Part shown: positions 9,286 through 22,699 of the stretch, piece after piece | Layout of the letters: every line of letters begins with the position of its first letter | Position numbering within the stretch: the first letter of the stretch is position 1 | Assembly (NCBI RefSeq): GCF_900009145.1 | Contig: NZ_LN889759.1 | Span: forward strand, 1-58,890 | DNA from: Planktothrix tepida PCC 9214 | GTDB taxonomy: Bacteria; Cyanobacteriota; Cyanobacteriia; Cyanobacteriales; Microcoleaceae | Reading direction: 5' to 3' | Length of the DNA: 58,890 bases | Made by a program: the position numbers and the translations under genes | Notes under the pieces: model-generated | What the model was told of the DNA's origin: nothing | Seen by the model: the letters and a program-made list of their open reading frames with translations, nothing else | The model's database searches: none

Positions 9286-9464
9286 AGCACCAATTTCAAA
9301 CTAGCTTCAAGTTTGATTATACGTTATCTACCTAAAAAAAACAAGGTAGGTAAACTCAGACATTCAACCACTTAATACGCATCTTCACCTGAATAGGCGA
9401 TCATTTGTCTCATGAGCTATCCACCTTTTTTTTCAATTATAATGTGATCGCCCTTTTTACAAGA

Positions 9465-9500
9465 GCGATCGCTTTTTAATGCGCTAAAGCTCAACTACGG
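9465..9500. repeat. 36-bp HIP1-containing dispersed repeat, copy 1
   Basis: The unit begins with a HIP1 site followed by TTTTAATGCGCTAAAGC and CAACTACGG. Closely similar copies are at 12412-12446 and 13195-13230, each beside a TA module. Confidence 0.85.
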
Positions 9501-9530
9501 GGTGGGATTGCCCTTTAACTCAAAAAGAGC

Positions 9531-9612
9531 GATCGCTTTTCTGGCTGGTTCATGTGTAGGAATGCGATCGCCTCTGCTACAATTTACTAAGATACTATAA
9601 TTAACTTACATT
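9531..9612 (+). promoter_or_regulatory. 82-bp promoter repeat, copy 1
   Basis: An 82-bp segment 78/82 identical to 10328-10409 by my count. It contains a TATAAT -10 box (9596-9601), a weak -35, and ends 17 bases before the vapB-like start. The same segment precedes the next module (antitoxin-like protein/HNH), so two unrelated gene pairs share one promoter sequence. Confidence 0.8.
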
Positions 9613-9628
9613 AATCAATAAAAACACT

Positions 9629-9877
9629 ATGACAACCAAAGAAGTAATTCTACAAGAATTAGAACAAATTACCCCTTCTCAACTGGATGAGGTATTAGAT
9701 TTCATTCGCTCTCTTAAGCAAACTGTTAAACCGACTGAGAAAGCTTATAAACCCATTTGGGAAGTAGCAGATGATATTATTAAAGATATTCCTGAAGAAG
9801 TTATAAGTCAATTACCAAAAGACGGGGCAGAAAATCATGATTTTTACTTGTCTAAAAACCTCCATCAAGAATTATGA
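9629..9877 (+). CDS. Antitoxin of PIN-toxin pair (DUF2281/VapB-like)
   Basis: An 82-residue protein starting at ATG 9629. The N-terminal helix-rich segment (TTKEVILQELEQITPSQLDE, then VLDFIRSLKQ) is the pattern of DUF2281-type antitoxins that accompany PIN toxins in cyanobacteria. The C-terminal half is Pro/Asp-rich and probably wraps the toxin. Its stop overlaps the toxin start by four bases (ATGA, 9874-9877), typical of translationally coupled TA pairs. Role inferred: neutralises the downstream PIN ribonuclease and autoregulates the 82-bp-repeat promoter. Confidence 0.8.
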   Translation: MTTKEVILQELEQITPSQLDEVLDFIRSLKQTVKPTEKAYKPIWEVADDIIKDIPEEVISQLPKDGAENHDFYLSKNLHQEL

Positions 9878-10290
9878 AAACTCTTTTTGTCGATACGTTT
9901 TATTGGGTCGCTTTAATTAATGTGGCTGACTCATGGCATCAGTCCGTTAGAGATTATAGTCGCAATCTCAATAATATTAAATTGGTGACAACAGAAGAAG
10001 TATTAATAGAAACGATTAATTTTTTTGCCTCTTTTCCATCCCCTATGAAAAAAGCAGTTTTTCAGTTAATTACCCAAGTTCTCGCTGATCAGAATATAAC
10101 TGTTATTCCTCAAAGCCATCAATCTTTTACCGCAGGTTTAGAGTTATTTAGTCAACGATTTGATAAAGGATACAGTTTAACAGATTGTATTTCTATGGTA
10201 ACGATGAATCAACTTAATATTACTGAAGTTTTAACCCATGATAAGCACTTTCAACAAGAAGGTTTTATCATTTTATTTAAGCAGAGTTGA
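9874..10290 (+). CDS. PIN-domain toxin (VapC-like ribonuclease)
   Basis: A 138-residue PIN-domain protein. The acidic metal-binding residues are visible: Asp7 (FVDTFYW), a Glu in TTEEVLIE, Asp in SLTDCISM, and a late Asp in THDKHF. VapC-type enzymes cleave RNA, often tRNA or rRNA, when freed from antitoxin. It is coupled by a four-base overlap to the upstream antitoxin gene. This is the PIN subgroup with FVDT-x-Y-W at the N-terminus and is not close to the VapC at 12523-12909, so the two modules have different origins. Confidence 0.85.
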   Translation: MKTLFVDTFYWVALINVADSWHQSVRDYSRNLNNIKLVTTEEVLIETINFFASFPSPMKKAVFQLITQVLADQNITVIPQSHQSFTAGLELFSQRFDKGYSLTDCISMVTMNQLNITEVLTHDKHFQQEGFIILFKQS

Positions 10291-10327
10291 ATTATCAATT
10301 GCGATCGCCGTTTACCTTAAAAAGAAT

Positions 10328-10409
10328 GATCGCTTTTCTGACTGGTTCATGTGTTGGAATGCGATCGCCTCTGATACAATTTACTAAGATGCTATAATTA
10401 ACTTACATT
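10328..10409 (+). promoter_or_regulatory. 82-bp promoter repeat, copy 2
   Basis: The second copy of the promoter segment at 9531-9612, with four substitutions counted; the -10 region GCTATAAT is kept. It lies 27 bases upstream of the ATG at 10437 and probably drives the antitoxin-like/HNH pair. Confidence 0.8.
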
Positions 10410-10436
10410 TCTCTTTAAGTGTTGCAAAGCTCGATC

Positions 10437-10796
10437 ATGCAGATTAAAGTCGAAGTTCCCGATGAATTGGCGATGCGGTTAAGTCCACTGCAAGAGCAGT
10501 TAACACAAATTTTAGAACTGGGTTTGCGGGAATGGAGTGCAGATGCTCAATCTGGATTTTCTGGGTTGGCAGATGTATTAGAATTCCTGGCAAATCTTCC
10601 GACTCCAGAGGAAATTTTGGCGTTGAAGCCGTCGGAAGCATTACAACAACATATTAACAATTTGCTAGAAAAAAATAGAACCGTTGGGTTGACGGCTGAA
10701 GAGGAACGATCATGGCAACAATATGAATATATTGAACATTTGGTGCGGGTGGCTAAGGCTAAAGCATTGCTAAAACTTAACACAGCTAAAAAATGA
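10437..10796 (+). CDS. Antitoxin-like partner of HNH protein
   Basis: A 119-residue protein from ATG 10437 (an in-frame TTG at 10419 would add six residues). It begins MQIKVEVPDELAMRL, a short ribbon-like start resembling DNA-binding antitoxin N-termini, and continues as charged helices with a basic end. Its stop overlaps the HNH start as ATGA (10793-10796). The promoter is copied from the neighbouring TA module. These features suggest an antitoxin or specificity subunit for the HNH protein. I cannot place it in a named family, so the function is inferred from context. Confidence 0.6.
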   Translation: MQIKVEVPDELAMRLSPLQEQLTQILELGLREWSADAQSGFSGLADVLEFLANLPTPEEILALKPSEALQQHINNLLEKNRTVGLTAEEERSWQQYEYIEHLVRVAKAKALLKLNTAKK

Positions 10797-11218
10797 GTAA
10801 GGCTTATGTTTCTGCTGCTCTCAAACGCTTGGTTTGTAATCGCGCTAATTTTGCTTGTGAGTATTGTTTGATGCCAGAAATTTCTGTTTTTGTACCCCAT
10901 GAAATCGATCATATTATTGCAGAAAAGCACGGCGGACAAACGAACGAAAATAATTTGGCGTTGGCTTGTACAATCTGCAACAAATATAAAGGAAGCGATC
11001 TGGCTTCAATCGATCCCATGAATGGGGAAATTGTGAGATTGTATCATCCTCGTCGTGATCGCTGGCGGGAGCATTTTAAATTAGAAAAAGGCGAAATTAT
11101 CCCGTTAACTGCGATTGCACGAGTGACCGTAAAATTGTTACAGATAAATCGTCCAGAGCGAGTTGAGGAACGAAGGTTACTATCACAAGCAAATATTTTG
11201 GATATTCCAGAATTCTAA
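10793..11218 (+). CDS. HNH endonuclease
   Basis: A 141-residue HNH nuclease. Seen: a zinc-binding C-x-x-C at 22-25, the core HEIDHIIAEKHGG (36-48; catalytic His40), NNLALAC (53-59) and the second C-x-x-C at 59-62. HNH proteins of this length cut DNA using a metal-activated His; in cyanobacteria they often stand beside a small helical protein, as here. It is coupled to that gene by a four-base overlap. It could be an orphan restriction-like nuclease, a homing-type remnant or the toxin of a TA-like pair; the shared promoter repeat favours the last. Confidence 0.85.
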   Translation: MSKAYVSAALKRLVCNRANFACEYCLMPEISVFVPHEIDHIIAEKHGGQTNENNLALACTICNKYKGSDLASIDPMNGEIVRLYHPRRDRWREHFKLEKGEIIPLTAIARVTVKLLQINRPERVEERRLLSQANILDIPEF

Positions 11219-11249
11219 TTTTACTATAAAAAGTAGGTTAGATTGAGCT

Positions 11250-11330
11250 TCATTTTTCTAGGTTTTGTCTTTCTTCTGGTGTTAATGAAGAAATAATTTG
11301 AACTAAAGAATCGATGAGTTTATGGTTCAT
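11250..11330 (-). pseudogene. Truncated vapB-like antitoxin, copy A
   Basis: The first 26 codons match the intact antitoxin at 12911-13135 (MNHKLIDSLVQIISSLTPEE...) almost exactly, with the same start context, then a stop follows. It is a 5' fragment lying downstream of the HNH gene on the opposite strand, inside repeat copy A (11259-11384). Confidence 0.8.
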
Positions 11331-11384
11331 ATTCTTTCAATTTCTCAATAATCTTATATTAATTATAGCGCGATCGCTCCCTTG
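11259..11384. repeat. vapB 5'-end/promoter repeat, copy A
   Basis: About 126 bp homologous to 12281-12405 and 13064-13185. It holds the antitoxin 5' end, its start region and a promoter-proximal HIP1. With copy B it brackets higBA. Confidence 0.8.
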
Positions 11385-11426
11385 TTTTCACACTTAAGTG
11401 CCACTAAAGATTGAATTAAAATTTAA

Positions 11427-11825
11427 CTAAATAAATAAGTTGATCGAAACTTGAAAATAATCAGCCAGTGCTTTTGCTTGCACCTTACTAATAGAACGTT
11501 TACCATTAACAACTTCAGAGACAACATCACTTGAGCCAATAGCACCAACTAAATCGCTTTCACAAGTTCCACTCATTTCCATCAAATGTTGTAAGATCTC
11601 GTAGGGTGTAGACTCATCGATGGGATACTGTTCTGATTCGTAGGTTTCAACTAACTGAACCAGCAATTTTAATAACGCTCGTTCTTCAGGGGTGCGAGTT
11701 TTAGCAAAGGTTAATCGTTCAACAATGGCTAAAATACGATCATACTCCTCCTCCGTTTCAATCACTTGAGGAGTGACTTCAGCTAACAGATTGCTATAAA
11801 CAGTTTTATCAATAGTAAGGGTCAT
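11427..11825 (-). CDS. higA: HigA-type antitoxin (XRE domain)
   Basis: A 132-residue antitoxin counted from ATG 11825 (MTLTIDKTVYSNLL). The N-terminal helical part (EEYDRILAIVERL) matches HigA-like proteins, and the C-terminal XRE-type helix-turn-helix (VSEVVNGKRSISKVQAKALADYF) binds the operon promoter. Its start lies inside the upstream toxin gene (17-base overlap), the toxin-first order characteristic of HigBA. An earlier in-frame ATG (11855) would lengthen the overlap and lacks support. Expected role: neutralise HigB and repress the operon. Confidence 0.85.
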   Translation of the reverse strand: MTLTIDKTVYSNLLAEVTPQVIETEEEYDRILAIVERLTFAKTRTPEERALLKLLVQLVETYESEQYPIDESTPYEILQHLMEMSGTCESDLVGAIGSSDVVSEVVNGKRSISKVQAKALADYFQVSINLFI

Positions 11826-12111
11826 TTTTCCACTTGCCTTTGTCATATTCGGCATGAGTCAGAAAATATTTGTAGTAAACGATCTGTTCTTCGTAGTCGA
11901 TACCTACAATTAATCGATAATTGTTACCTTTGATGTTAAATACAGTAAAATTACTCACGGCTTCAGCATCTCGGTAAATTTTACGAACATCTTCTAAGTT
12001 CTTCCAATTGGCTTTTTTGACAACTGCATACCAATCATCAATCTGCTTTTTCACATCAGGATATTTTGCAGTATCAGTACGCAGATTCCGTATTGAGATT
12101 AAATGGAACAT
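11809..12111 (-). CDS. higB: HigB-type mRNA interferase toxin
   Basis: A 100-residue RelE/HigB-fold protein from ATG 12111. Seen: DDWYAVVKKANWKNLEDVRKIY, split as a HigB-like helical lead, then the core FNIKGNNYRLIVGIDY and the C-terminal FLTHAEYDKGKW, matching the HigB_toxin family (PF09907-like). Such toxins cleave mRNA on the ribosome. It precedes and overlaps the antitoxin gene. A decayed antitoxin copy lies on either side of this module (copies A and B). Confidence 0.88.
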   Translation of the reverse strand: MFHLISIRNLRTDTAKYPDVKKQIDDWYAVVKKANWKNLEDVRKIYRDAEAVSNFTVFNIKGNNYRLIVGIDYEEQIVYYKYFLTHAEYDKGKWKNDPYY

Positions 12112-12244
12112 AATCTTTAAATTCAATTATATTTTTCATAGTCTTACCAAATAACTTCTCTGAATTTATTTTAATTGTACCATTTATTCAATGTATCGTC
12201 AAGTCTTTACAGTTATTATTGACCATTAGGTTTACTATAATTCT

Positions 12245-12345
12245 TTAAATCCTCTCGATTTTTCCACTAATTCTTGTTATAGGCTTTGTCTTTCTTTTGG
12301 TGTTAATGAAGAAATAATTTGAACTAAAGAATCGATGATTTTATG
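12245..12345 (-). pseudogene. Decayed vapB-like antitoxin, copy B
   Basis: Homologous to the antitoxin at 12911-13135. The start ATG has become ATA (C to T at the plus-strand CAT), and an internal deletion joins the 5' portion to a stretch resembling codons for the WKDREDL part near the C-terminus. It cannot be translated from the ancestral start. Confidence 0.7.
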
Positions 12346-12516
12346 GTTTATATTCTTTTAATTCCTCAATAATTTTATATTAATTAGAGCGCGATCGCTC
12401 TTTTAAAAAGGGCGATCACTTTTTAATGCGCTAAAGCGCAACTACGAAGTTATTCGACACCTTCAATGGGGGCAAAACCTTGACGTTGAATGTTTTTGGT
12501 AATATGACGGCGTTCA
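12281..12516. repeat. vapB/putA-tail direct repeat, copy B
   Basis: About 236 bp aligned to 13064-13297. It contains the decayed antitoxin 5' end, its promoter, the HIP1 repeat and a copy of the last ~64 bp of the putA coding sequence (12453-12516). Together with copy C it flanks the vapBC module as direct repeats. Confidence 0.85.
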
Positions 12517-12522
12517 TTAAAG

Positions 12523-12909
12523 TTAAGGATAAGGTAACAAATTTACTTCTGTAATAAAACGATAATCACTCTGATTTTTAGTGAGGAGAGGGATATTAAA
12601 ACTAATGGCTGTCGCAGCTATTAACGCATCAGGAATTAATAAACCATGACTGAGGCGGTATTGCCTCAATAGTTCAACAGCTTGATCCGAAATAGATTCA
12701 TTAATTTTAAGAATTACATAGTTGTTTAAAAAAACAGTTAATTTTTGCTGTTCAGATTTATTGCGACAACCGACCATTAATTCCATCTCTGTCACCACAC
12801 TAATTGACAACAAGGCTGTGTGGGATTCATCTTGAAGTCGATTAATAGCGGGTTCAATTCCCCGAAATACATCAATTAAGATATCTGTATCAATTAAAAT
12901 TTGCTTCAT
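12523..12909 (-). CDS. vapC: VapC toxin (PIN domain)
   Basis: A 128-residue VapC. Acidic residues of the PIN site are visible: Asp7 (LIDTDILID), Glu41/Glu43 in VTEMELMVG, and Asp94 in LLIPDALIAATA, followed by a final Asp-rich strand. VapC enzymes are Mg-dependent ribonucleases held inactive by VapB. It starts one base after the antitoxin stop. The coding region ends directly against a duplicated fragment of the putA 3' end, so the 3' boundary was probably made by the repeat recombination. Confidence 0.92.
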   Translation of the reverse strand: MKQILIDTDILIDVFRGIEPAINRLQDESHTALLSISVVTEMELMVGCRNKSEQQKLTVFLNNYVILKINESISDQAVELLRQYRLSHGLLIPDALIAATAISFNIPLLTKNQSDYRFITEVNLLPYP

Positions 12910-12910
12910 G

Positions 12911-13135
12911 CTAACCCATCCATTCTTGCTTTCTCATTTGACGAACCCATGCTGAACTATCTTGTAAATCTTCTCGATCTTTCCACATTCCCACGCAAGG
13001 ATCATCTTTAATAGAAATAAAAGACTGTTGAATTGAGGGTTGTTGACTGGCTAATTGTTTTTCTAGGGTTTGCCTTTCTTCCGGTGTTAATGAAGAAATG
13101 ATTTGAACTAAAGAATCGATGAGTTTATGGTTCAT
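12911..13135 (-). CDS. vapB: VapB-type antitoxin
   Basis: A 74-residue antitoxin (MNHKLIDSLVQIISSL, then SSAWVRQMRKQEW at the end). The C-terminal region with W-x-R is the usual PIN-binding tail of cyanobacterial VapB-like antitoxins; the N-terminal part has a short helical segment. It is the first gene of the vapBC unit and runs on the minus strand, away from putA. Two broken copies of its 5' end (11250-11330, 12245-12345) lie on the far side of the HigBA module and between the modules. Confidence 0.85.
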   Translation of the reverse strand: MNHKLIDSLVQIISSLTPEERQTLEKQLASQQPSIQQSFISIKDDPCVGMWKDREDLQDSSAWVRQMRKQEWMG

Positions 13136-13297
13136 ATTCTTTCAATTCCTCAATAATCCTATATTAATTATAGCGCGATCGCCCTTAAAAAAAAGCGATC
13201 GCTTTTTAATGCGCTAAAGCGCAACAACGGGGTTATTCAACACCTTCAATGGGGGCAAAACCTTGACGTTGAATGTTTTCGGTGATGTGACGGGGTT
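13064..13297. repeat. vapB/putA-tail direct repeat, copy C
   Basis: The parental-looking copy: it spans the intact vapB 5' end, its promoter, HIP1 sites and the true putA 3' end (13233-13297). Copy B is a second, more diverged version 783 bp away. Confidence 0.85.
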
Positions 13298-16208
13298 CTA
13301 AGAACTGTAATAAATAATCGGGGCCACCCGCCTTAGAACCCACACCGGAAAGTTTAAACCCGCCGAAGGGTTGGCGAGAAACAATAGCCCCCGTAATGCC
13401 TCGGTTAATGTACAAATTTCCCACTTCAAATTCAGCTTTTGCCTTCTGAATATGGGACGGAGTTCTGGAATATAAACCCCCCGTTAAAGCAAAATTAGTG
13501 CCATTGGCAATATCCAACGCTTCCTCAAAATTTTGAGCTTTGATCACCGCTAAAACCGGGCCAAAAATTTCCTCTTGGGCGATTTTTGCCGTCGGTAAAA
13601 CATTAATAAAAACCGTTGGCCCCACAAAATAACCCGTTTCCGGTGCCGCAACTTGGATCGCTAATTCTGCTTCTTGTTTGCCAATCTCAATATACTCTTT
13701 AATCTTCTGTTGAGCATTGGCATCAATCACCGGGCCAACCTGGGTACTGGGTAACACCGCATTCCCCACATTTAAAGACCGCACTGCCTCTGTTAACCGC
13801 TTGACAAATGCCTCATAAACAGGTTCTAACACCACCACACGGGAACAGGCGGAACATTTTTGACCCGTATACCCAAAGGCAGAATACACCACACCTGCCA
13901 CTGCTTGGTCAAGGTCGGCACTTTCATCAACGATAATGGCATTTTTGCCCCCCATTTCCGCAATCACCCGTTTCAGGTGTTTCTGTCCGGGTTTGAGTAG
14001 TGCCGCTTCAGCATAAATGCGACATCCCACCTCCTGGGAACCCGTGAAGGTAATCATGTGAACGTCCGGGTGTTGTACCATGTAGGAACCCACCGTTGAG
14101 CCTTTTCCGGGTACAAATTGGAACACACCCGCCGGAATACCCGCCTCTACTAATACTTCGGTAATTTTCACGGCGATCACCGATGACACTTCCGCAGGCT
14201 TCAATAACGTGCAGTTCCCCGTAACTAAGGATGCGACCGTCATCCCAACGGGAATGGCCAGGGGGAAATTCCAGGGGGAAATAATCACCGAAATGCCACG
14301 GGGTTGATAGTTGTAACGGTTGGTTTCGCCAGCAGTGTCATACTGGTAGCCCTGATCCAAACGTTCCATTTCATCGGCATAATAACGACAGAAATCAATC
14401 GCCTCGGACACTTCTGCATCCCCTTGATGTAGGGGTTTTCCGACTTCAAACGCCATCCAAGCACATAATTCCGCCCGCCGTTGTTCAAACAGTTCGGCGG
14501 CTTTTCGTAGCACACCTGCCCGTTCTCGGACTGGAGTATGCCGCCATGCTGGAAAGGCAGCTTTCGCGGCTTGAATGGCGGTTTCCGCTTGTTCAACGCT
14601 AATTAACCCGACTTTCCCCACAATTTCTGAGGGGTTAGAGGGGTTTAAGGAGTCTATCATTTGGGCGGTATTAATATATTGACCATTAATTAACGGTTGA
14701 TAGGTTTGTCCTAATTGTTGACGCACCATTTCTAACGCCCGTAACCCTTTATCCCGTAACGCAGCATTAGAAAAATCCGTATCGGCTGAATTTGGAAATA
14801 CGGGTTTCCAAGTCTCAAAAATATTGCTATTCGGGTTATCTTTAGGGGCAGATAATAACTCTTCAACAGGGCGATTTTCTGAACTTTGACGCACAAAAGA
14901 ACTATTGGCCGTATTTTCTAATAACCGCCGAATTAAATAGGACATTCCGGGTAATAAATCTCCATAGGGGCAATACATTCTCACCCGATATCCTTTTTGA
15001 ACTAAGGCTTTAGCGAGTTGGTCGCCCATGCCATATAAAACCTGCATTTCAAAGGCACGACGAGGCACATTTAAGGTTTCTGCAATGGCGATCGCTCTGG
15101 CTTGAGAACGAACATTATGGCTACCAATAGCAGAATAAATATATTGATGATTTTCTAACATCAATTGAGTCAATCGTTCAAAATTAGCATCCGTTGCGGC
15201 CTTATCATTATAAACAGGTTGGGGCCAGTCATTTTGCATCGATTTAATGGTTTCTTGATCCCAATAAGCACCTTTCACCAATCGTATACTAACGGGATAA
15301 CCTCGTAATTTTACCCATTCAATAATGCCTTCTAAATCCTTTTGAGACTCTCGTAAATAAGCTTGCACCGTCATGCCAATATCCGTGCGGCTGCGGAATT
15401 CTTCTTCCATCAACAGATTTTTTAAAATGCTGAAGGTTAAATCTTTATAGGCGTATTGTTCCATATCAAAATGCACCGCCGCCCCTAATTCTTTCGCCCG
15501 ACGCAATAAAATTCGGATACGTTCTCCGACTTTTTCTTCACTTCCTTTTGCATCTAAGGGATCAAATTGAGAATAAAATGCCGTTAATTTAACGGAAACT
15601 TGAACTTTAGGAATGGGCTGTCCATCGGCTTCATCAATTTGGGGAATAGTTGACCATTTTTTAGCCGCATCGCTGAGACTTTCCATCAATTCTAAATAAT
15701 TATTGAGATAAGATTGTGCCTCAGTTTCAGTAATAACGGCTTCCCCTAATAAATCAACCGTAAACGCCATTTTATCTTTGCGTAACTGTTCTAAAGTTTT
15801 AATAACTTTAGGAATATTAGCACCTGCAATATATTTTTGGGCTAAGGTTTCTACCGCAGGCGCTACCGTTGTCGCCGCTAGTTGTCCGGGGAGGGAGTCA
15901 GGGTTAGCAAAATTGAGTAATTTTTTGAGAACATCAGGAAGTTCGACTGCTTCTGTGGTCAGATATTCTTGTAAATGGGCTGCAATTTCTGGTTTACTTC
16001 GTAATGCGGGTAAACAATCAATAAAATGGAACAATTGCACTCGTAAACCGGGGTTTGACATTGCCCAGTCCATGAGTTTATCATCAAAGCGCATTTGGTC
16101 TTGTAACTGTCCGAACAATGAGCGCTTTTTCTCTTGGGTCGCTGCTAAAAGTTGTTTAGCAATCTCTTGTGTTTTGGCTTCGTAAGTGTCAGGATATTGT
16201 GCAACCAC
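13233..16208 (-). CDS. putA: Bifunctional proline dehydrogenase / P5C dehydrogenase
   Basis: A 991-residue PutA. Residues about 1-480 form the FAD-dependent proline dehydrogenase barrel (FDMEQYAYKDLT; later GSHNVRSQARA and MYCPYGDLLPGMSYLIRRL, with the RRL-type substrate-binding Arg pair). Residues about 500-980 form the NAD-dependent glutamate-semialdehyde (P5C) dehydrogenase, with Glu751 (IAEMGGKN) and catalytic Cys785 (GQKCSACSR). It oxidises proline to glutamate with channelling of P5C. The N-terminal ribbon-helix-helix repressor domain of Escherichia coli PutA is absent, so it is not a trifunctional form. Its 3' end is duplicated at 12453-12516. The start at ATG 16208 fits the domain boundary. 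Confidence 0.95.
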   Translation of the reverse strand: MVAQYPDTYEAKTQEIAKQLLAATQEKKRSLFGQLQDQMRFDDKLMDWAMSNPGLRVQLFHFIDCLPALRSKPEIAAHLQEYLTTEAVELPDVLKKLLNFANPDSLPGQLAATTVAPAVETLAQKYIAGANIPKVIKTLEQLRKDKMAFTVDLLGEAVITETEAQSYLNNYLELMESLSDAAKKWSTIPQIDEADGQPIPKVQVSVKLTAFYSQFDPLDAKGSEEKVGERIRILLRRAKELGAAVHFDMEQYAYKDLTFSILKNLLMEEEFRSRTDIGMTVQAYLRESQKDLEGIIEWVKLRGYPVSIRLVKGAYWDQETIKSMQNDWPQPVYNDKAATDANFERLTQLMLENHQYIYSAIGSHNVRSQARAIAIAETLNVPRRAFEMQVLYGMGDQLAKALVQKGYRVRMYCPYGDLLPGMSYLIRRLLENTANSSFVRQSSENRPVEELLSAPKDNPNSNIFETWKPVFPNSADTDFSNAALRDKGLRALEMVRQQLGQTYQPLINGQYINTAQMIDSLNPSNPSEIVGKVGLISVEQAETAIQAAKAAFPAWRHTPVRERAGVLRKAAELFEQRRAELCAWMAFEVGKPLHQGDAEVSEAIDFCRYYADEMERLDQGYQYDTAGETNRYNYQPRGISVIISPWNFPLAIPVGMTVASLVTGNCTLLKPAEVSSVIAVKITEVLVEAGIPAGVFQFVPGKGSTVGSYMVQHPDVHMITFTGSQEVGCRIYAEAALLKPGQKHLKRVIAEMGGKNAIIVDESADLDQAVAGVVYSAFGYTGQKCSACSRVVVLEPVYEAFVKRLTEAVRSLNVGNAVLPSTQVGPVIDANAQQKIKEYIEIGKQEAELAIQVAAPETGYFVGPTVFINVLPTAKIAQEEIFGPVLAVIKAQNFEEALDIANGTNFALTGGLYSRTPSHIQKAKAEFEVGNLYINRGITGAIVSRQPFGGFKLSGVGSKAGGPDYLLQFLEPRHITENIQRQGFAPIEGVE

Positions 16209-16345: not shown

Positions 16346-16541
16346 TTAAATTAGATTTATAATTTGATTAACAATTCTATCAACATCTTGAATTAATAAT
16401 CTAGCCTGAGTGATGGTAATTTGCTCATGAGGTGCTTTATAACTATCATCAGATTGAAACTCAGGATAGAGAAACTTTTCTCGATTTAGCACTCTCCATA
16501 TACCGTTGCGCTATTTCTTGATAAATTTTCTTCGCACTCAT
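16346..16541 (-). pseudogene. Small ORF with an apparent frameshift, or coupled GTG-start ORF
   Basis: Two overlapping frames. Frame 1 starts at ATG 16541 (MSAKKIYQEIAQRYMESAK) and stops after 26 residues. A +1 shift near AAATCG joins it to a frame reading NREKFLYPEFQSDD...DVDRIVNQIINLI, ending at 16346. Alternatively, the second frame starts at GTG 16492 and overlaps the upstream stop by seven bases, giving a 48-residue coupled protein. It lies directly after the 157-residue gene, so it may be its antidote or partner. The sequence alone does not decide. Confidence 0.45.
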
Positions 16542-16959
16542 AGACAATAATTCCCTGTTTAAATTCCTGTATTAATTCTGAATTAATATCAGCATAGTTA
16601 AAAATATGAAAAATAGGCATTAACAAGAATTCAACATAAAAGTCTGCAAAAACTTCTGATAATTCCCAAATAATTTGATTCTCAGGCTCAAAATTGCCTA
16701 AAATCCAAATATTAATTGTTTCCTGTTCATGTTTTTGGATAATGACATGAGGACTAATTTCTGACCGATAATAATTTTTATACAAATTTTCAACAATAAT
16801 TAAATCAATCCCATGTAACTGCTTAATGATATTTATTTCAGCATAAATACTGTTGTTAATCCTTTGATAAAATCCCAGAAAATCATCAGGGTATGATTTC
16901 AAGGGAATTGTTACCCCCTTAATTGTATCTCTAATATTTTCTATATCAAGAACAACCAT
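16486..16959 (-). CDS. Unknown 157-residue protein, possible TA partner
   Basis: Start chosen at ATG 16959 because AGGAG lies seven bases upstream; an upstream frame from 17022 would add residues encoded by the promoter repeat. The product is 157 residues, mixed alpha/beta, with Ile/Tyr-rich strands (GIDLIIVENLYKNYY, NIWILGNFEPEN) and no membrane helix or known catalytic motif. Upstream sequence (16981-17027) is shared with the brnT promoter region. With the small overlapping ORF downstream it has the two-gene layout of TA modules, but I recognise neither family. Confidence 0.55.
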   Translation of the reverse strand: MVVLDIENIRDTIKGVTIPLKSYPDDFLGFYQRINNSIYAEINIIKQLHGIDLIIVENLYKNYYRSEISPHVIIQKHEQETINIWILGNFEPENQIIWELSEVFADFYVEFLLMPIFHIFNYADINSELIQEFKQGIIVYECEENLSRNSATVYGEC

Positions 16960-16980
16960 ATCAACGCTCCTGATTAAACT

Positions 16981-17027
16981 AATGTATCTACTCATTATAA
17001 ACGATAACATCAACCCAATCATTCTGT
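16981..17027 (-). promoter_or_regulatory. Promoter repeat shared with brnTA, copy 1
   Basis: About 45 bp nearly identical to 21754-21799, carrying a minus-strand TATAAT. It lies just upstream of the 157-residue gene and is followed by a MITE-like element in both places. Confidence 0.7.
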
Positions 17028-17039
17028 ACCCTAATTCCC

Positions 17040-17145
17040 TGATTCCCTGGTTCTACCAGGGAATTAAAGTAGGAGGCTCTGCCTCCAATTAAAACAGCAG
17101 GCGGAGCCTGCAAAATAGTATTGCTAGGTGGAACCTAGCAACGAG
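17040..17145. mobile_element. MITE-like multi-hairpin element, copy 1
   Basis: Full-length copy: four tight stem-loops (TGGTTCTACCA, AGGCTCTGCCT, GCAGGCGGAGCCTGC, GCTAGGTGGAACCTAGC) ending AACGAG. Homologous to 26800-26910 and to shorter copies at 18636-18711 and 21800-21877. It codes for nothing. Confidence 0.85.
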
Positions 17146-17158: not shown

Positions 17159-17476
17159 TTAGGCTGCTTTTATATTGACTTCAACACGAATATCCATACC
17201 TGCTTTAGCTATCATTATTACTAATTTATCAATACTAAATCTTTCGATATCGCCATTCATCAAATCACTAATGCGAGGTTGGGTTTCACCAAAAAATACA
17301 GCAGCTTGCTTTTGAGTCCATCCTTTTGTCTGAATAAAATGTTTAATTGTTAACATGAGATCAGCGCGAATTTTGAGATTGAGAGCTTCTTCAGGTGCGA
17401 AGCCTAAATCTTCAAATACATTAGTGCGACCTTGAATAATTTCGGGAACTTGATTCTGGCTCATTTGTCCATTCAT
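17159..17476 (-). CDS. XRE-family DNA-binding protein
   Basis: A 105-residue protein with an XRE helix-turn-helix at about residues 52-80 (GWTQKQAAVFFGETQPRISDLMNG), the HigA/'XRE-like antitoxin' type that often closes a TA operon; the C-terminus DIRVEVNIK is typical of that group. ATG 17476 overlaps the stop of the upstream zinc-ribbon gene by four bases (ATGA). Inference: an autorepressor or antitoxin for the upstream protein, although that protein is not a RelE/HigB-type toxin. A MITE-like element lies directly downstream. Confidence 0.8.
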   Translation of the reverse strand: MNGQMSQNQVPEIIQGRTNVFEDLGFAPEEALNLKIRADLMLTIKHFIQTKGWTQKQAAVFFGETQPRISDLMNGDIERFSIDKLVIMIAKAGMDIRVEVNIKAA

Positions 17477-18540: not shown

Positions 18541-18635
18541 AAGTAAATCACAAGGTTGTTTTATTTTTGGAAATAATCGCTAAAAATTCGGCTGTAAATT
18601 TTAAATTTTGATAATAGGACTTAATAAATGCAAAA

Positions 18636-18711
18636 AGAGGCTCTGCTTCCGATTAAAAAACAGCAGGCGGAGTGTGGAATCTAGTATTGTTAGGTTCTAC
18701 CTAGAAATCAG
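18636..18711. mobile_element. MITE-like element, degenerate copy 3
   Basis: A partial, mutated version of the 17040-17145 element: one hairpin and the GCAGGCGGAG unit are recognisable, the left hairpin is missing and the AACGAG end is altered. It lies upstream of the zinc-ribbon gene. Confidence 0.65.
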
Positions 18712-18775
18712 GGATTATTGAGAGTGCCTTTTTCTAAAAATCTGAATATTTGCATCAGAAAAAGGCAGTCGCTGA

Positions 18776-19021
18776 TTAATTAAAACCTGCTGGGATTACC
18801 TTAATCCCCTGTTGAGCAGCTAGATAAATTCTATGTCTCCCATTACAAATTTCGTAAGGTCGTGTTCCTCTGTATAGTACAATAGGCTCTTTTTTGTCAT
18901 GAAGCAAACTGGATAGCGAATTAGGAGAATTTTCTAATGCGCGTATTTTAAGCTCATTAAGTTCGCTTCTCTTAGGAATCCTAATATCCGACATTTTTAC
19001 AGGTACAGTTTCTATATCCAT
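18776..19021 (-). CDS. Small ParB/sulfiredoxin-fold protein
   Basis: An 81-residue protein with the ParB-like core: a 'positions-to-keep' segment (PIVLYRGTRPYEI) followed by CNGRHRIYLAAQQ (the G-R-H-R motif) and IKVIPAGF. In full-length ParB this fold binds CTP and DNA; single-domain versions occur as orphan regulators or nuclease-like proteins near mobile genes. There is no HTH or C-terminal dimer domain, so it is not a chromosome-partition ParB. It lies between the degenerate MITE and the STAND gene, with no clear operon partner. Confidence 0.7.
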   Translation of the reverse strand: MDIETVPVKMSDIRIPKRSELNELKIRALENSPNSLSSLLHDKKEPIVLYRGTRPYEICNGRHRIYLAAQQGIKVIPAGFN

Positions 19022-19087
19022 ATTTTCATTTTTACTTTACTCAATTTTAATTTAAGAATAGGTTAGACTCAAATCAATGTCAGTCTG

Positions 19088-19149
19088 AAAAGTAGGAATT
19101 TTGACAAAGTTGCAAAAGTACGCAAAGTACGAATAGTATTAAAAGTAGG
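19088..19149. promoter_or_regulatory. Direct repeats of AAAAGTA(C/G)G upstream of STAND gene
   Basis: Four 9-base units (19088-19096, 19114-19122, 19123-19131, 19141-19149), the middle two in tandem and the last pair 18 apart. They lie within 100 bases of the STAND start and could be operator half-sites for the HTH-like N-terminus of that protein or for another regulator. Inference. Confidence 0.4.
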
Positions 19150-19184
19150 GTAAAATGTGATCACCTTTAACATCTTCTTGGGTT

Positions 19185-20579
19185 ATGGATATTGAAGAAG
19201 TCCTAGAACTGGCAGATCATCTCATTTTTACCAAGACAGGAAAACACTTAGATCATCTCCAACAAGCGATTCTGCGAGGTACTATACAAAACTGTACATA
19301 CTCGGAAATTGCTGAAGATCATTATGCCAGTGAAAGTCATGTTAAATGGGTCGGTTCAGAATTATGGAAAATGATCTCTGAAGAGTTAGGAGAAACGGTT
19401 AAAAAATCTAATTTTAGAGCTATATTTGAGAAAGGGAAAATTTATAAGAATAAAATTTCATCAGCTATTGTTGGTGAGACAGTTACAGTTCATCATATTA
19501 ATATTTGTTCTGAATCAGAAAGAGCTAAAGCTCAACAACAAAAGCAATCCCATCTAAATGATCCTGAAATAACTCCTAATCAACCCTATATCGATTTAAA
19601 CGACGCACCAAAAATAACAAAATTTTACGATCGCACTCAAGAACTTTCTACCCTAGAAAAATGGATTATAGAAGATGGAGTTCAGTTAATAACCCTTTTA
19701 GGTTTAAGTGGAATTGGCAAAACAACCCTTTCCCTTCATTTGATAGATGAAATTAAAACTAACTTTGATTATATAATTTATCGCAGCCTTGGTTTTGCTC
19801 CTACCCTAGATGAAACCTTAACGAACTTGTTAGAAATATTCGGCAATCCAGATAAAATAGAAATTCCTTTAAAGCTAGAAACAAAACTTTCTCAACTGTT
19901 TAATTATCTGCGTCAATATCGCTGTCTTCTCATCCTAGATGATATCCAAATGCTGTTTTTTGAGGGACAATTGGCAGGTCACTATCAATCTGGTTATGAG
20001 AATTATCAACTATTTTATAAAAAAATTGCCGAGGTTTGTCATCAGAGTTGCGTGATCTTAAACAGTTGGGAAAAACCTAGAGAAATTGAAAAAATTGAAT
20101 TTGAAAATCTTCCTGTTCGTACTTTGATATTAGGAAGTTTAGGTCTAGCTGCTCAAAATATTTTTAGAGATAAAAATTTATCTAATCCTGAAACATGGGA
20201 TATCTTAATTAATACTTATCAAGGCAACCCTTTATGGTTAGGAATGATAGCAACTCTGATTCAAGAATTATTTAATAGTAGAGTAACTGAGTTTTTGTAC
20301 TATGATGAGCCGATTTTATGCGACTCCCTGCAAGAGCAACTTAAGCTACATTTTCAACGTTTATCTCCCCAGGAAAAAACTGTAATTACTGTTCTTTCTC
20401 ATTCTTCAGAAATCATGAATTTACAGTCTCTTGCAACTCAGACTAAACTATCAAATTCAGAGTTATTAAATACTATTCAATCTCTAATCAGGCGTTTTTT
20501 AGTGGTCAGAGAAGAACAAGATAACGTGACATTTTTTATTGTGAATCCTCTGTTAAAAGAATATGTTAAAAAGATTTAA
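19185..20579 (+). CDS. STAND NTPase without C-terminal sensor repeats
   Basis: A 464-residue signal-transduction ATPase. Residues 1-85 form a helical, HTH-like N-terminal domain (HLDHLQQAILRG ... TYSEIAEDHY) found at the front of many cyanobacterial NB-ARC proteins. The NTPase follows: Walker A GLSGIGKTT (173-181), Walker B CLLILDD (247-253), then a sensor-like region and a winged-helix end (LLKEYVKKI). Usual STAND proteins continue into WD40 or TPR sensors; this one stops, so it may sense through a partner. Many STAND NTPases act in phage defence, but that is family knowledge, not shown here. Plus strand, alone. Confidence 0.85.
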   Translation: MDIEEVLELADHLIFTKTGKHLDHLQQAILRGTIQNCTYSEIAEDHYASESHVKWVGSELWKMISEELGETVKKSNFRAIFEKGKIYKNKISSAIVGETVTVHHINICSESERAKAQQQKQSHLNDPEITPNQPYIDLNDAPKITKFYDRTQELSTLEKWIIEDGVQLITLLGLSGIGKTTLSLHLIDEIKTNFDYIIYRSLGFAPTLDETLTNLLEIFGNPDKIEIPLKLETKLSQLFNYLRQYRCLLILDDIQMLFFEGQLAGHYQSGYENYQLFYKKIAEVCHQSCVILNSWEKPREIEKIEFENLPVRTLILGSLGLAAQNIFRDKNLSNPETWDILINTYQGNPLWLGMIATLIQELFNSRVTEFLYYDEPILCDSLQEQLKLHFQRLSPQEKTVITVLSHSSEIMNLQSLATQTKLSNSELLNTIQSLIRRFLVVREEQDNVTFFIVNPLLKEYVKKI

Positions 20580-20588
20580 AGTTGGGTT

Positions 20589-20828
20589 TTATTTTAACAG
20601 TTGATCGATTTCTTCATCAGTAAAGCCAAATTGCCGAAAAATCCTTAATACATAAGCAGGTGACATTTCTTTCGCACCCATATCAATAGGAACAATATGT
20701 TTACTTTCTGGAGTTAAACGAATATATAAGCAATGATCTCCTTTCCCTTCTCGATCAAACCTACATCCACCTTTTTCTAAAATTTTAATCAATTCTCTCG
20801 GCTTTAATGAAGGGATGTTTTTAGGCAT
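20589..20828 (-). CDS. hicA: HicA toxin
   Basis: A 79-residue HicA mRNA interferase with the double-stranded RNA-binding-like fold. The catalytic His lies in GKGDHCLY (His32), and the RELIKILEKGGCRF start is typical. HicA is translated from an eight-base overlap with the upstream hicB, giving the hicB-hicA order. The C-terminus FTDEEIDQLLK is standard. It converges tail-to-tail with the STAND gene. Confidence 0.93.
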   Translation of the reverse strand: MPKNIPSLKPRELIKILEKGGCRFDREGKGDHCLYIRLTPESKHIVPIDMGAKEMSPAYVLRIFRQFGFTDEEIDQLLK

Positions 20829-21084
20829 AAACCTTCCTTAATTCATAACTATTTGATTTATTATCCTCATCAATAGTTAAAAATTCATGAAGTTCTAAAA
20901 TCGAAATAGGAGATTGATCAACTTTTTCCTCGGTTTCACATACTAATAAAAAAGATTCAATCGCTTCTTGAAGTTTACTAATGGATTGTTCAGGATTGTC
21001 CCCTTGAGCAACAATTCCATTTTCTAAACATAATGCAACCCAATATCCTGAACTTTTCCTAAGAACAACGCTATAAAACTCCAT
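20821..21084 (-). CDS. hicB: HicB antitoxin
   Basis: An 87-residue HicB-type antitoxin; I chose ATG 21084 because GAGG lies eight bases upstream and the protein then begins MEFYSVVLRKSSGYWVALC, the usual HicB start with the partial RNase-H fold, followed by GDNPEQSISKLQEAI. It lacks a recognisable ribbon-helix-helix C-terminus, as in the 'short' HicB group. The longer frame to 21120 is unlikely. Role: block HicA and repress the operon. Confidence 0.88.
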   Translation of the reverse strand: MEFYSVVLRKSSGYWVALCLENGIVAQGDNPEQSISKLQEAIESFLLVCETEEKVDQSPISILELHEFLTIDEDNKSNSYELRKVYA

Positions 21085-21214
21085 TATTATTACCTCATCT
21101 TTACTTGGATTAAGGATCATTCTTGATAACTTGCTGTTGAGAATAATCTAAATTAGTTTGATATTTAACTCTATTAATTCTCCTAATTAAACCAAGGTAT
21201 TGATTAGTAATGAC

Positions 21215-21475
21215 TTATTCTTTAGTCGTGTTTACCTCATGTTCAAAATAAGAACGTAGTACGGAATTCATCATCGATTGATAGCCTTTTCCTTGGCTTT
21301 TAAACCAATCTAAAACATCACTATCAACTCTTAAAGAAATAGCTTTTTTGGTAATCGGTTTAACGAGTTTAGCTTTTTCCCAAAAACTGGCATCTAATTC
21401 AGGTATATCTGATGTGTCAATCGCATTTTCTGGGAGATTTTCTAACTCTTTAAGTCGTTTTTGCGAGATAGTCAT
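21215..21475 (-). CDS. brnA: BrnA antitoxin
   Basis: An 86-residue antitoxin from ATG 21475 (MTISQKRLKEL). The second half carries the BrnA ribbon-helix-helix (ITKKAISLRVDSDVLDWFKSQGKGYQ, split here as ISLRVDSDVLDWFK and SQGKGYQ), which binds DNA as a dimer and neutralises BrnT. It overlaps the brnT 3' end by 26 bases, the normal brnT-brnA order. Confidence 0.9.
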   Translation of the reverse strand: MTISQKRLKELENLPENAIDTSDIPELDASFWEKAKLVKPITKKAISLRVDSDVLDWFKSQGKGYQSMMNSVLRSYFEHEVNTTKE

Positions 21476-21737
21476 AATAGGTTTTTCTTTCTTGACGAGT
21501 AGCTTTTCTTGCAGATATGATTCGGATGACTCCACTTCTTTCAGTATGCACTACGGTCACGATAACAACACCCTGTATTGCACCGATACTAATTTCTCGA
21601 ATCTCTCCGCCGTAATCAAAACGTTCATCAATGGCGGTAAAAACAAGTCCGTCAAATATTTCTTGAGCTTCTTCAAAGCTAATACCATGTTTTTTGAGAT
21701 TTTGAGCATTTTTGTTTACATCCCATTCAAACTGCAT
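21450..21737 (-). CDS. brnT: BrnT toxin
   Basis: A 95-residue BrnT ribonuclease of the RelE-like fold. The diagnostic opening FEWDVNKNAQNLKKHGISF and the end RIISARKATRQERKTYY are both present, including the basic residues used for RNA cleavage. It is first in the brnTA operon, with promoter region 21754-21799 that is nearly the same as the one at 16981-17027. A MITE-like element lies just upstream. Confidence 0.93.
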   Translation of the reverse strand: MQFEWDVNKNAQNLKKHGISFEEAQEIFDGLVFTAIDERFDYGGEIREISIGAIQGVVIVTVVHTERSGVIRIISARKATRQERKTYYDYLAKTT

Positions 21738-21753
21738 GATTGAGTATATACAA

Positions 21754-21799
21754 AATGTATCTACTAATTATAAACGATAACATAAATCAATCATTATGT
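21754..21799 (-). promoter_or_regulatory. Promoter repeat shared with 157-aa gene, copy 2
   Basis: Near-identical to 16981-17027 and carrying a TATAAT on the minus strand. It supplies the probable brnT promoter. Confidence 0.7.
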
Positions 21800-21877
21800 C
21801 TTCCCTATTTCCCTTGGGAATGTAAACAGCAGGCGGAGCCTGCAAAATAGCATTGCTATGTGTAACCTAGCAACGAG
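21800..21877. mobile_element. MITE-like element, copy 2 (internally deleted)
   Basis: Same family as 17040-17145; the second hairpin is missing but the GCAGGCGGAGCCTGC stem-loop and the AACGAG end are intact. Directly upstream of the brnT promoter repeat. Confidence 0.8.
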
Positions 21878-21890
21878 GGGATAAGGAGGA

Positions 21891-22298
21891 TTAAGGACTG
21901 GTTAATAATACATAAAATCGCTTATTTCTTTTTAACCAATAGGTGATTGCTTCTGAAAAAATATCATTTAAGATTTGCCAATCATCAGGATAATTCTCAG
22001 CGAAATTTTGCCATTGATCATAAACAATCAAATAAGATGACGCTTCAAACCAACTGAGATCAGTTAGACAATCTTCCCAAGCATCCCAATTATAGCCAAA
22101 ATATTCAGGTAAATTCATCACCGTGCTGGCTGTTTTTAGAAAATCAGCTTTATTGTTAATTGTGCTGCCGTCAAAATAAAATAACTCACAGCTATACTCT
22201 TGACAAAGTTGAGATAATTCTTCTGGAGAAATATCTAAGGGAAACTGATAAATATTCGGTTGACTTTCACCTTGTATGAGGTTTAATATTTGATTCAT
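21891..22298 (-). CDS. Barstar-family RNase inhibitor
   Basis: A 135-residue barstar-like protein (FYFDGSTINNKADFLKTAS, then FGYNWDAWEDCLTDLSW), the fold whose acidic helix and Asp plug the active site of barnase-type RNases. It overlaps the upstream RNase gene by four bases and follows it, so the pair is coordinately made, with the inhibitor in the cytosol while the enzyme is exported. Confidence 0.9.
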   Translation of the reverse strand: MNQILNLIQGESQPNIYQFPLDISPEELSQLCQEYSCELFYFDGSTINNKADFLKTASTVMNLPEYFGYNWDAWEDCLTDLSWFEASSYLIVYDQWQNFAENYPDDWQILNDIFSEAITYWLKRNKRFYVLLTSP

Positions 22299-22699
22299 TG
22301 TCTTAAAACCCTAAAAAAACTTTGATAATGGTTGCTGGTGTAATAAATTTCCCCCTGACTACCGACGACAAAGCGCCTAGCTCCCCGACTTCTTTCCCCT
22401 GGAGTGGGTATAGTATATTCCCGATAATAACCATTGGGTTTATTGGGTAATAATTTTTCTCGGTTAAAGAAAGTTGAGCCATCTTTTTCGGGGTAAGGGA
22501 AAGGGCCTCCTTGCTCAATTAATTTTAAAGTATTCCGGGCTTCTGCTGGCAGTTGACTTAAATTAACGGTTGGAATTTGAGCAATAATAGTGATTTGCGT
22601 TGCAGAAACCGGAGAAAAATGAAAATGATGGGTAATACTAACGCTAAAACAGACTAAGCATGTCAGGAAAAAGATCAATCCTTTTCTCAAAAAAGACAT
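22295..22699 (-). CDS. Secreted guanyl-specific RNase (barnase/RNase Sa-like)
   Basis: A 134-residue microbial RNase. A hydrophobic signal segment (residues about 5-35) precedes the RNase domain. Catalytic residues of the N1/T1 family are visible: Glu94 (YREYTIP), the Arg cluster 103-109 (RSRGARR) and His124 (TSNHYQSFF). It cleaves RNA after G. The downstream barstar gene protects the producer. Possible roles are nutrient RNA scavenging or killing of neighbours; the sequence does not decide. There is no toxin-delivery domain or long N-terminal trafficking region, so it is not a CDI/polymorphic toxin. Confidence 0.9.
   Translation of the reverse strand: MSFLRKGLIFFLTCLVCFSVSITHHFHFSPVSATQITIIAQIPTVNLSQLPAEARNTLKLIEQGGPFPYPEKDGSTFFNREKLLPNKPNGYYREYTIPTPGERSRGARRFVVGSQGEIYYTSNHYQSFFRVLRQ

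What the first reader, a model, noticed from the sequence alone, without database searches (positions are those of the whole stretch)
9286..22699. A 13-kb island packed with toxin-antitoxin modules around putA
At least seven modules with clear or likely TA character lie here: DUF2281/PIN, antitoxin-like/HNH, HigBA, VapBC, HicBA, BrnTA and RNase/barstar, plus uncharacterised pairs and a STAND NTPase. The families differ, but the flanking DNA is re-used. A chromosomal locus growing by stacking TA cassettes is unusual enough to merit comparative work.
Basis: partly seen in the sequence, partly recalled or inferred. Interest (0 to 1): 0.72.

Follow-up and report, generated by a model that had tools for sequence, protein, structure and literature searches.

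The report
Shuffling toxin-antitoxin array beside putA
In ten related cyanobacteria the DNA beside one metabolic gene holds a different set of small toxin-antitoxin gene pairs each time, and the joins suggest that the pairs are swapped between species by recombination in re-used DNA, in one case inside an antitoxin gene itself.

Summary
The window is Planktothrix. HigBA, VapBC, HicAB, BrnTA and RNase/barstar have toxin or partner matches to family models; DUF2281/PIN and antitoxin/HNH are likely pairs. In all 10 Planktothrix genomes held putA is here, and RNase/barstar follows in all 9 that reach it, so that pair is a border, not a cassette. What lies between and beside them differs in each genome (putA-barstar gap 306 to 5,682 bp), and module order is permuted even between sister species. 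Module alleles are younger than putA (median synonymous divergence ratio 0.32 left, 0.44 right, control 0.88); for three modules tested, near-identical alleles sit only here.

The re-used flank is mainly the 5' part of the vapB antitoxin gene with its upstream DNA, plus the last 66 bp of putA. The same 5' part leads to a PIN toxin in two genomes and, through a VapB-MazE chimeric antitoxin, to an intact MazF toxin in two. Its first ~30 codons recur at the start of cyanobacterial antitoxins beside five toxin families.

Most likely: locus-specific recombination between species that adds, loses and re-pairs modules. Excision, uptake and toxicity are not shown. New variant of known TA islands.

The parts
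9503..9628 (+). U1: upstream (promoter/leader) unit of the DUF2281 antitoxin
   Evidence: 90% identical over 110 nt to U2; also precedes DUF2281 in G001, G002, G005, G007
9629..10290 (+). DUF2281 antitoxin (9629-9877) and PIN-like toxin (9874-10290)
   Evidence: DUF2281 Pfam 0.003, below cut-off; PIN by annotated plasmid relative; open pair also in G002; toxin mostly deleted in G005, absent in G001 and G007
10300..10418 (+). U2: copy of U1, here upstream of the HNH antitoxin
   Evidence: in G005 and G009 the same antitoxin has a different upstream sequence
10419..11218 (+). antitoxin-like gene (10419-10796) and HNH endonuclease (10793-11218)
   Evidence: Pfam HNH 2.6e-13; antitoxin 98-99% aa identical in G002, G005, G009; the HNH frame of G002 has an internal stop
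11253..11388 (-). remnant A: first ~26 codons of vapB plus upstream DNA, joined to HNH downstream DNA
   Evidence: same HNH/vapB junction in G009
11427..12126 (-). HigBA (HigB 11809-12126; HigA 11427-11855)
   Evidence: Pfam HigB_toxin 1.1e-31; also at this locus, open, in G002, G005, G008
12215..12409 (-). remnant B: decayed copy of the VapB-MazE type antitoxin 5' part plus upstream DNA
12450..12515 (-). P3 copy: second copy of the last 66 bp of putA, abutting vapC
   Evidence: 5 differences from the window's native putA end, 2 from the same copy in G002, which shares the vapC junction
12523..13135 (-). VapC PIN toxin (12523-12909) and VapB antitoxin (12911-13135)
   Evidence: Pfam PIN 4.7e-13; also open in G002; in G006 vapC has an internal stop and vapB lacks its 5' part
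13051..13232 (-). native handle: vapB 5' coding part plus intergenic DNA up to putA
13233..16208 (-). putA, constant anchor
   Evidence: 93-98% aa identical in all 9 congeners; partial at a contig end in G004
16486..17022 (-). uncharacterised 178-aa gene, variable
   Evidence: no family above cut-off; in G001, G002, G008, fragments in G003
17087..17145 (.). REP-like double hairpin
   Evidence: DNA fold z -5.89; 20 related copies in the genome, 4 of them in the window
17159..17476 (-). HTH antitoxin (HTH_37) whose RelE-like partner is missing here
   Evidence: Pfam 1.3e-23; 100% identical in G008 next to a Gp49/RelE toxin; upstream DNA changed at the start codon
17473..19021 (-). Zn-ribbon protein (17473-18540) and ParB-like protein (18776-19021), possibly a mobile pair, function unknown
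   Evidence: same pair and order elsewhere in G002
18653..18711 (.). degenerate REP-like copy, no longer a good hairpin
   Evidence: z 0.41
19185..20579 (+). NB-ARC NTPase
   Evidence: Pfam NB-ARC 3.1e-10
20589..21120 (-). HicA toxin (20589-20828) and HicB antitoxin (20821-21120)
   Evidence: Pfam HicA 7.3e-10; also open in G002, G005; hicB remnant in G001
21215..21737 (-). BrnA antitoxin (21215-21535) and BrnT toxin (21450-21737)
   Evidence: Pfam 2.7e-17 and 2.4e-26
21819..21877 (.). REP-like double hairpin at the barstar border
   Evidence: z -2.73
21891..22699 (-). barstar (21891-22298) and ribonuclease (22295-22699), constant anchor
   Evidence: Pfam 1.6e-27 and 3.1e-24; in all 9 genomes that reach it

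Best explanation
The flanks of putA are a site in Planktothrix where TA modules are exchanged between species by homologous (or near-homologous) recombination. On the putA 3' side the crossovers fall in re-used handles: the 5' part of the vapB antitoxin gene with its upstream DNA, and the putA 3' end. A module that carries a handle can be added (giving handle-module-handle), lost (leaving an antitoxin remnant), moved to another order, or joined to a different neighbour. Because the main handle is the start of an antitoxin gene, a join there can also give an existing antitoxin start a new toxin-specific tail and toxin: the same vapB start serves a PIN toxin in two species and, as a VapB-MazE chimera, a MazF toxin in two others. 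On the putA 5' side modules lie between REP-like hairpins, and a REP transposase may take part there. Shown by sequence: presence/absence, permutation, shared junctions, chimera, younger module alleles, and (for three modules) near-identical alleles at this locus only. Inferred: the DNA uptake route, RecA dependence, circle versus linear substrate, and that the pairs work as toxins and antitoxins.
For: Content differs among all 10 genomes while putA (10 of 10) and barstar/RNase (9 of 9 that reach it) stay; the putA-barstar gap is 306 to 5,682 bp in 9 genomes. Order: G000 HNH-HigBA-VapBC-putA, sister G002 HNH-VapBC-HigBA-putA. What lies left of the vapB handle (HNH, PIN, MazF) and right of it (putA, HigBA, HicAB) combines freely: HNH+HigBA (G000), HNH+putA (G009), PIN+putA (G000), PIN+HigBA (G002), MazF+HigBA (G008), MazF+HicAB remnant (G003). 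Handle copies are themselves mosaic. The putA-end copy left of VapBC is shared by G000 and G002 with the same vapC junction, though the modules around it differ. Saturation-corrected 4-fold divergence relative to putA: left modules median 0.32 (18 of 18 pairs below 1), right 0.44 (9 of 10), control barstar/RNase/GUN4 0.88 (22 of 36). Near-identical alleles at this locus only: HigB 4 of 4, HNH antitoxin 4 of 4, HTH antitoxin 3 of 3. The last 500 bp of putA are mosaic in the sisters G005 and G008: donor-like sites 18 of 32 against 30 of 193 in the rest (G008) and 17 of 26 against 31 of 168 (G005), p 2.4e-6 each. Chimera: its middle scores with VapB types (z 10.8 and 12.0), its tail with MazE types (z 10-18), not the reverse.
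Against: No excision product, circle or within-species difference could be tested: one genome per species is held. The putA mosaic is clear in one sister pair only; G003, G007, G000, G002 and G009 show none and G001 p 0.034 (mid-gene cut 0.0098); G005 and G008 each also lean to the other outside group (p 2.8e-4 and 0.011), so donors are not resolved; the 500-bp cut was chosen, though the mid-gene cut also gives p 1.4e-4 (G008) and 3.9e-6 (G005). Pairs are not independent, and only relatives of at least 60% identity and 75% coverage were counted, which favours similar alleles. Handles are short (about 50-250 bp, 80-96% identical), short for efficient exchange between species. Right-side modules lack the vapB handle. 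G001, G005 and G006 have no full vapB handle now. Outer flanks also change between genomes, so larger rearrangements add to the variation.
Confidence: 0.7

Rival explanations
1. One large ancestral TA array was inherited vertically and each species lost different modules.
For: Some junctions are shared by distant species (HNH/vapB remnant in G000 and G009; HigBA left junction in G000, G002, G005, G008), and decayed remnants and broken toxins show that loss happens.
Against: Module alleles are far younger than putA; order is permuted between sisters; loss alone does not put PIN in some species and MazF in others behind the same vapB start.
Confidence: 0.1
2. A dedicated mobile-element mechanism (REP/RAYT, IS, integron or Xer-site cassettes) inserts the modules, and homologous recombination plays little part.
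For: REP-like hairpins lie between right-side modules; a REP-associated tyrosine transposase (NCBIfam 6.5e-30 for the G006 copy; the G001 copy is 96% identical) sits between REP copies at this site in G001 and G006; 4 of the 20 genome copies, the query included, lie in the window, binomial p 2.5e-5; an ISAs1 transposase sits at the site in G007.
Against: No recombinase among the island proteins scanned; the left handles are an antitoxin start and a putA end, almost single-locus, not element ends; near-identical alleles of the three modules tested are not found elsewhere, which free insertion would give.
Confidence: 0.15
3. Local tandem duplication and divergence inside one lineage made the repeats, with modules arriving by rare unrelated events.
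For: A tandem duplication of vapC-vapB-upstream DNA-putA end would give exactly the putA-end/vapC junction.
Against: The modules between repeats belong to unrelated families; young alleles are shared across species at this locus.
Confidence: 0.05

Closest known systems
TAS 'islands' of Makarova et al. 2009 (PMC2701414; passages seen)
   Same: Closely spaced TA pairs of different classes; the authors suggest preferred sites and/or transfer of TAS 'cassettes'.
   Different: In the passages seen, no junctions, handles or species-by-species turnover; here the joins are resolved.
Replacement flexible genomic islands exchanged by homologous recombination (Lopez-Perez et al. 2014, PMC4033161; abstract and outline seen)
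   Same: Same chromosomal site, different genes, exchange by homologous recombination, aquatic prokaryotes.
   Different: Per the abstract those are islands typically for exposed cell structures, replaced between clonal frames; here single TA pairs and even part of an antitoxin move, and one handle is inside the array.
Microcystis TA module 1067/1065 fenced by two 152-bp direct repeats beside MaOC1 (PMC7935541; passages seen)
   Same: Cyanobacterial TA pair between direct repeats; the neighbouring gene is not the same in all strains that have it.
   Different: One module, identical repeats, no antitoxin fragment in the repeat.
TA partner swapping: NetFlax and Panacea antitoxins (PMC10440598; passages seen)
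   Same: One antitoxin domain paired with many toxin families.
   Different: That is a network map with tested pairs; here a PIN-to-MazF change behind one antitoxin start is seen at one locus in one genus. The start module here had no Pfam match above cut-off in the proteins scanned.
XerC/D-site (pdif) modules of Acinetobacter plasmids (PMC5790767; passages seen)
   Same: Discrete modules between re-used short sites, with rearrangement.
   Different: Site-specific recombination on plasmids; no such sites were sought here.

Membership tests
TA island (Makarova sense) | several TA pairs of different classes closely spaced | tested here: met
TA island (Makarova sense) | closer spacing than the genome background | not tested
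   no genome-wide TA census was made
Replacement flexible genomic island | constant core genes at the site, different content in relatives | tested here: met
   putA in 10 of 10, barstar/RNase in 9 of 9 that reach it; content differs in each. Outer flanks are not constant
Replacement flexible genomic island | recombination signature in the flanking core gene | tested here: inconclusive
   clear in G005/G008, none in five of the other six genomes queried
Integron | integrase gene beside the array | tested here: not met
   no integrase among the island proteins scanned in the window; the whole genome was not searched
Integron | attC sites after each cassette | not tested
   -
REP/RAYT element | REP-like hairpins and a REP transposase in the genus | tested here: met
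   concerns the right side only
Type II TA (each pair) | toxin growth arrest neutralised by the partner | not testable with these tools
   indirect only: toxins are broken while antitoxins stay open, not the reverse
Panacea (PanA) antitoxin | Panacea/DUF4065 domain | tested here: not met
   window VapB has no Pfam match at E up to 0.1, nor have the VapB-type relatives L119 and L131

The most novel reading that the evidence does not exclude
A ~30-residue helical hairpin encoded at the start of many cyanobacterial antitoxins is a portable start module: it is re-used with tails and toxins of unrelated families (PIN, PemK/MazF, DUF5615, TumE, ParE), and its DNA, with the promoter, works as a recombination handle so that a TA locus can change toxin without losing an expressed antitoxin start. 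The Planktothrix putA locus catches this in the act, including a two-headed VapB-MazE antitoxin that could neutralise both VapC and MazF while a lineage switches toxin.
Probability: 0.35. Interest if true: 0.8.

Novelty: new variant of a known kind. Interest (0 to 1): 0.62.

Why it matters
How TA modules change partners is an old question, studied largely through protein networks. Here one locus in one genus shows the joins: same antitoxin start, different toxins, with remnants, permutations and a chimera. It gives a system in which partner change, module gain and loss, and their effect on growth or phage resistance can be tested with close relatives, and a named candidate for a transitional form.

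Tried and rejected
No match: Rfam over 6000-27500 at gathering scores; phage records over 9400-13300. Plasmid records (17 with a match, 15 listed) match single modules, at most 15% of the query, and none covers 80%, so the array was not found on a plasmid.

Partner swap of the HTH antitoxin with the Zn-ribbon gene: considered and dropped, because the Zn-ribbon gene travels with the ParB-like gene elsewhere in G002, so insertion beside the antitoxin is likelier than re-pairing.

A conserved TA site at putA in other cyanobacteria: not found. In the 33 outgroup loci examined (L034-L066 of the 80 kept from 405 relatives; several are cut short by contig ends) no relative of these modules lies within 1.8 kb of putA, the nearest being a HicB at 1,813 bp in L052. 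Other TA families there were not sought.

PADLOC, 10 proteins: HigB resembles PD-Lambda-2 A and HNH resembles PtuB; no partner gene of either system showed among the 10. Structure of VapB: only the hairpin (helices 3-15 and 18-31, pLDDT 85-89) is confident, pTM 0.32, so no fold search was run.

Dropped before counts: G004 (73% complete, 5-kb contig) from the gap lengths and; vapB because it is chimeric; module pairs with under 20 sites; 10 of 70 loci before the tally. Kept although broken: HNH of G002, vapC and RNase of G006 (stops seen only).
Full report
What the window is. The tool places the window's genome in the same genus. The window is the whole of one contig of a 6.78-Mb draft. Ten genomes of the genus are held, the window's own included; all ten were compared.

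Are the modules there? HigB, VapC (PIN), HNH, HicA, BrnT, BrnA, barstar and ribonuclease pass curated cut-offs. DUF2281 and its PIN partner are likely but not certain. The rest of the interval is an unknown gene, an HTH antitoxin without its partner, a ParB-like/Zn-ribbon pair and an NB-ARC NTPase.

Are the flanks re-used? Yes. Left of putA lie U1/U2 upstream of two different antitoxins (87-90%), a 143-bp unit made of the vapB 5' part and its upstream DNA (three copies, 84-88%), and a 114-bp unit containing the last 66 bp of putA (two copies, 89%). In the whole genome the combined 249-bp unit has six matches, itself included, five of them here. Right of putA the repeat is a different thing, a REP-like double hairpin with 20 related copies in the genome, four of them in this window; one of the four no longer folds well.

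Do relatives share the content? putA is present in all ten and barstar/RNase in all nine that reach it, but the rest differs in each genome. Left of putA, in window orientation: G000 DUF2281/PIN, HNH, HigBA, VapBC; G002 DUF2281/PIN, HNH (internal stop), VapBC, HigBA; G005 DUF2281 with PIN mostly deleted, HNH, HigBA; G008 MazF with chimeric antitoxin, HigBA; G009 HNH only; G006 an HTH/PIN pair and VapBC with vapC stopped and vapB truncated; G003 HTH/PIN, MazF with chimeric antitoxin, and HicB with a HicA remnant; G004 HTH/PIN, chimeric antitoxin with a mazF fragment, HicAB; G007 DUF2281, chimeric antitoxin with a mazF fragment, an ISAs1 transposase; G001 DUF2281, HTH with a broken PIN gene, HicB. 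The putA-barstar gap is 306 bp in G007 (REP only) and 5,682 bp in the window. A GmrSD-type restriction gene lies just left of the array in G002 and G007. The outermost neighbours also change, in about four left types and three right types by my reading, so larger rearrangements happen here too.

Toxins break first. By my count there are 11 cases at this locus in which an antitoxin frame is kept, whole or nearly so, and its toxin is broken or gone (HNH in G002; DUF2281's PIN in G001, G005, G007; MazF in G004, G007; Gp49 in G009 and in the window; PIN_3 in G001; HicA in G001, G003), none of the reverse, and one with both damaged (VapBC in G006). This was noticed late and is not a planned test, but it is what real TA pairs should show.

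Are the modules exchanged between species? Three tests say so. First, alleles are too young: 4-fold divergence, corrected for saturation and divided by that of putA, has a median of 0.32 for left modules (18 of 18 pairs below 1), 0.44 for right modules (9 of 10) and 0.88 for neighbouring constant genes (22 of 36) (pairs overlap in genomes, G004 left out, only relatives of at least 60% identity counted). Second, near-identical alleles occur only here for the three modules searched: HigB at 96% or more 4 of 4, HNH antitoxin at 98% or more 4 of 4, HTH antitoxin at 97% or more 3 of 3; the other matches in the genus (16, 10 and 5) are 81% or less. Third, the putA end next to the array is mosaic in the sisters G005 and G008 (18 of 32 against 30 of 193 sites for G008; 17 of 26 against 31 of 168 for G005; p 2.4e-6 each). 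Against that: five of the other six genomes queried show nothing and G001 p 0.034; G005 and G008 also lean, less, to each other's outside group, so donors are open; the cut was set after looking, though the mid-gene cut is also significant for both. The putA tree used for kinship is.

Where are the joins? The vapB handle is preceded and followed by different modules in free combination. The handle copies are mosaics: the middle of the chimeric antitoxin gene in G003 is closer to the PIN-type gene of G002 (93%) than to the MazF-type gene of G008 (82%), over 57 positions. The putA-end copy left of VapBC differs by 2 bases between G000 and G002 and by 5 to 12 from any native putA end, so this flank travels with VapBC. 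HigBA has the same left junction in all four genomes that hold it, whatever lies beyond. Two further joins fall at antitoxin starts: U2 gives the HNH antitoxin of G000/G002 an upstream region unlike that in G005/G009, and in the window the DNA upstream of the HTH antitoxin start is no longer the Gp49/RelE toxin seen in G008 (a remnant of it in G009) but the Zn-ribbon gene.

The chimera. In G003 and G008 a 99-aa antitoxin precedes a PemK/MazF toxin (Pfam 2.9e-12 for the G003 copy; both frames open). Its first 60 residues match VapB, including the GMWKDRED stretch of the PIN-paired form, and its tail matches the MazE-like antitoxins that precede MazF in other cyanobacteria; the two parts do not cross-match. 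G004 and G007 keep the whole chimera with only a 5' fragment of mazF.

The start module. Profile search with the first 32 residues finds it in 43 of 145 genomes of the class at E up to 0.001, and an earlier 60-residue query in 71 of 195 genomes of the order. Of 60 loci read (not a random sample, some duplicates, six from Planktothrix), tails fall into MazE-like 15, DUF433 13, TumA-like 8, a YETATP type 8, VapB-like 6, TPR 3 and other 7; classes were set by simple motifs and the names MazE-, VapB- and TumA-like are mine. Of 17 next genes scanned, 15 pass a Pfam cut-off: PemK 5, PIN 3, DUF5615 3, TumE 3, ParE 1; two do not. No Pfam or NCBIfam model above its cut-off covers the module in the proteins scanned (DUF433 begins after it). 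It is predicted as a helical hairpin. That it makes dimers or binds DNA is my guess. Paper searches that might have shown it and, in listings, did not; of the papers listed I saw passages of five. Subscription papers are mostly not held.

How it most likely works. Incoming DNA from another species pairs with a handle at this locus; crossovers in two handles replace a module, one crossover with a circle or an unequal exchange adds one, and exchange between two resident handles deletes one and leaves a remnant. The layout handle-module-handle around HigBA and VapBC fits addition by a single crossover. Joins at antitoxin starts keep an expressed antitoxin in place. None of these steps has been watched; natural uptake in these species was not tested. 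On the right side REP elements may add a second route.

Verdict. A real, actively remodelled TA locus, close in kind to TA islands and replacement islands, with two features I did not find described in the searches above: a handle made of an antitoxin start, and an in-place change between VapC and MazF through a chimeric antitoxin.

Noticed in passing
window 17473-19021; L159 1025-2568: A ParB-like/Zn-ribbon gene pair without known families occurs beside the HTH antitoxin here and at a distant place in G002 (77% identical Zn-ribbon protein); no match to the Zn-ribbon protein in the other 38 of 40 genomes searched. Possibly a small mobile unit.
   Followed up: partly
L124 (G002), L127 (G007), L128 (G000), other loci: The antitoxin start module is also found on a 191-aa protein with TPR repeats in three Planktothrix genomes (TPR by Pfam for L124).
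   Followed up: no
window 40513-40585 and 41337-41409: A 73-nt imperfect inverted repeat (77%) brackets a 140-aa unknown ORF; an ORF that looks like pentapeptide repeats to me lies beside it.
   Followed up: no
window 8234-9285: A 227-aa and a 116-aa gene at the left edge have no relatives in the fetched stretches of nine congeners; the first looks nuclease-like to me, no family match.
   Followed up: no
G002 (L015:10340-12031) and G007 (L025:2260-3975): GmrSD-type restriction genes lie directly left of the TA array in two congeners, hinting at a wider defence role of the site.
   Followed up: partly
L023:3034-3564 (G006) and L013:15655-16185 (G001): A REP-associated tyrosine transposase sits between putA and barstar with REP copies on both sides.
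   Followed up: partly
putA locus in congeners (G001-G009) and window 17159-17476: Where a module decays, the toxin is broken or gone while the antitoxin frame stays: 11 cases against 0 of the reverse by my count, one with both damaged.
   Followed up: partly
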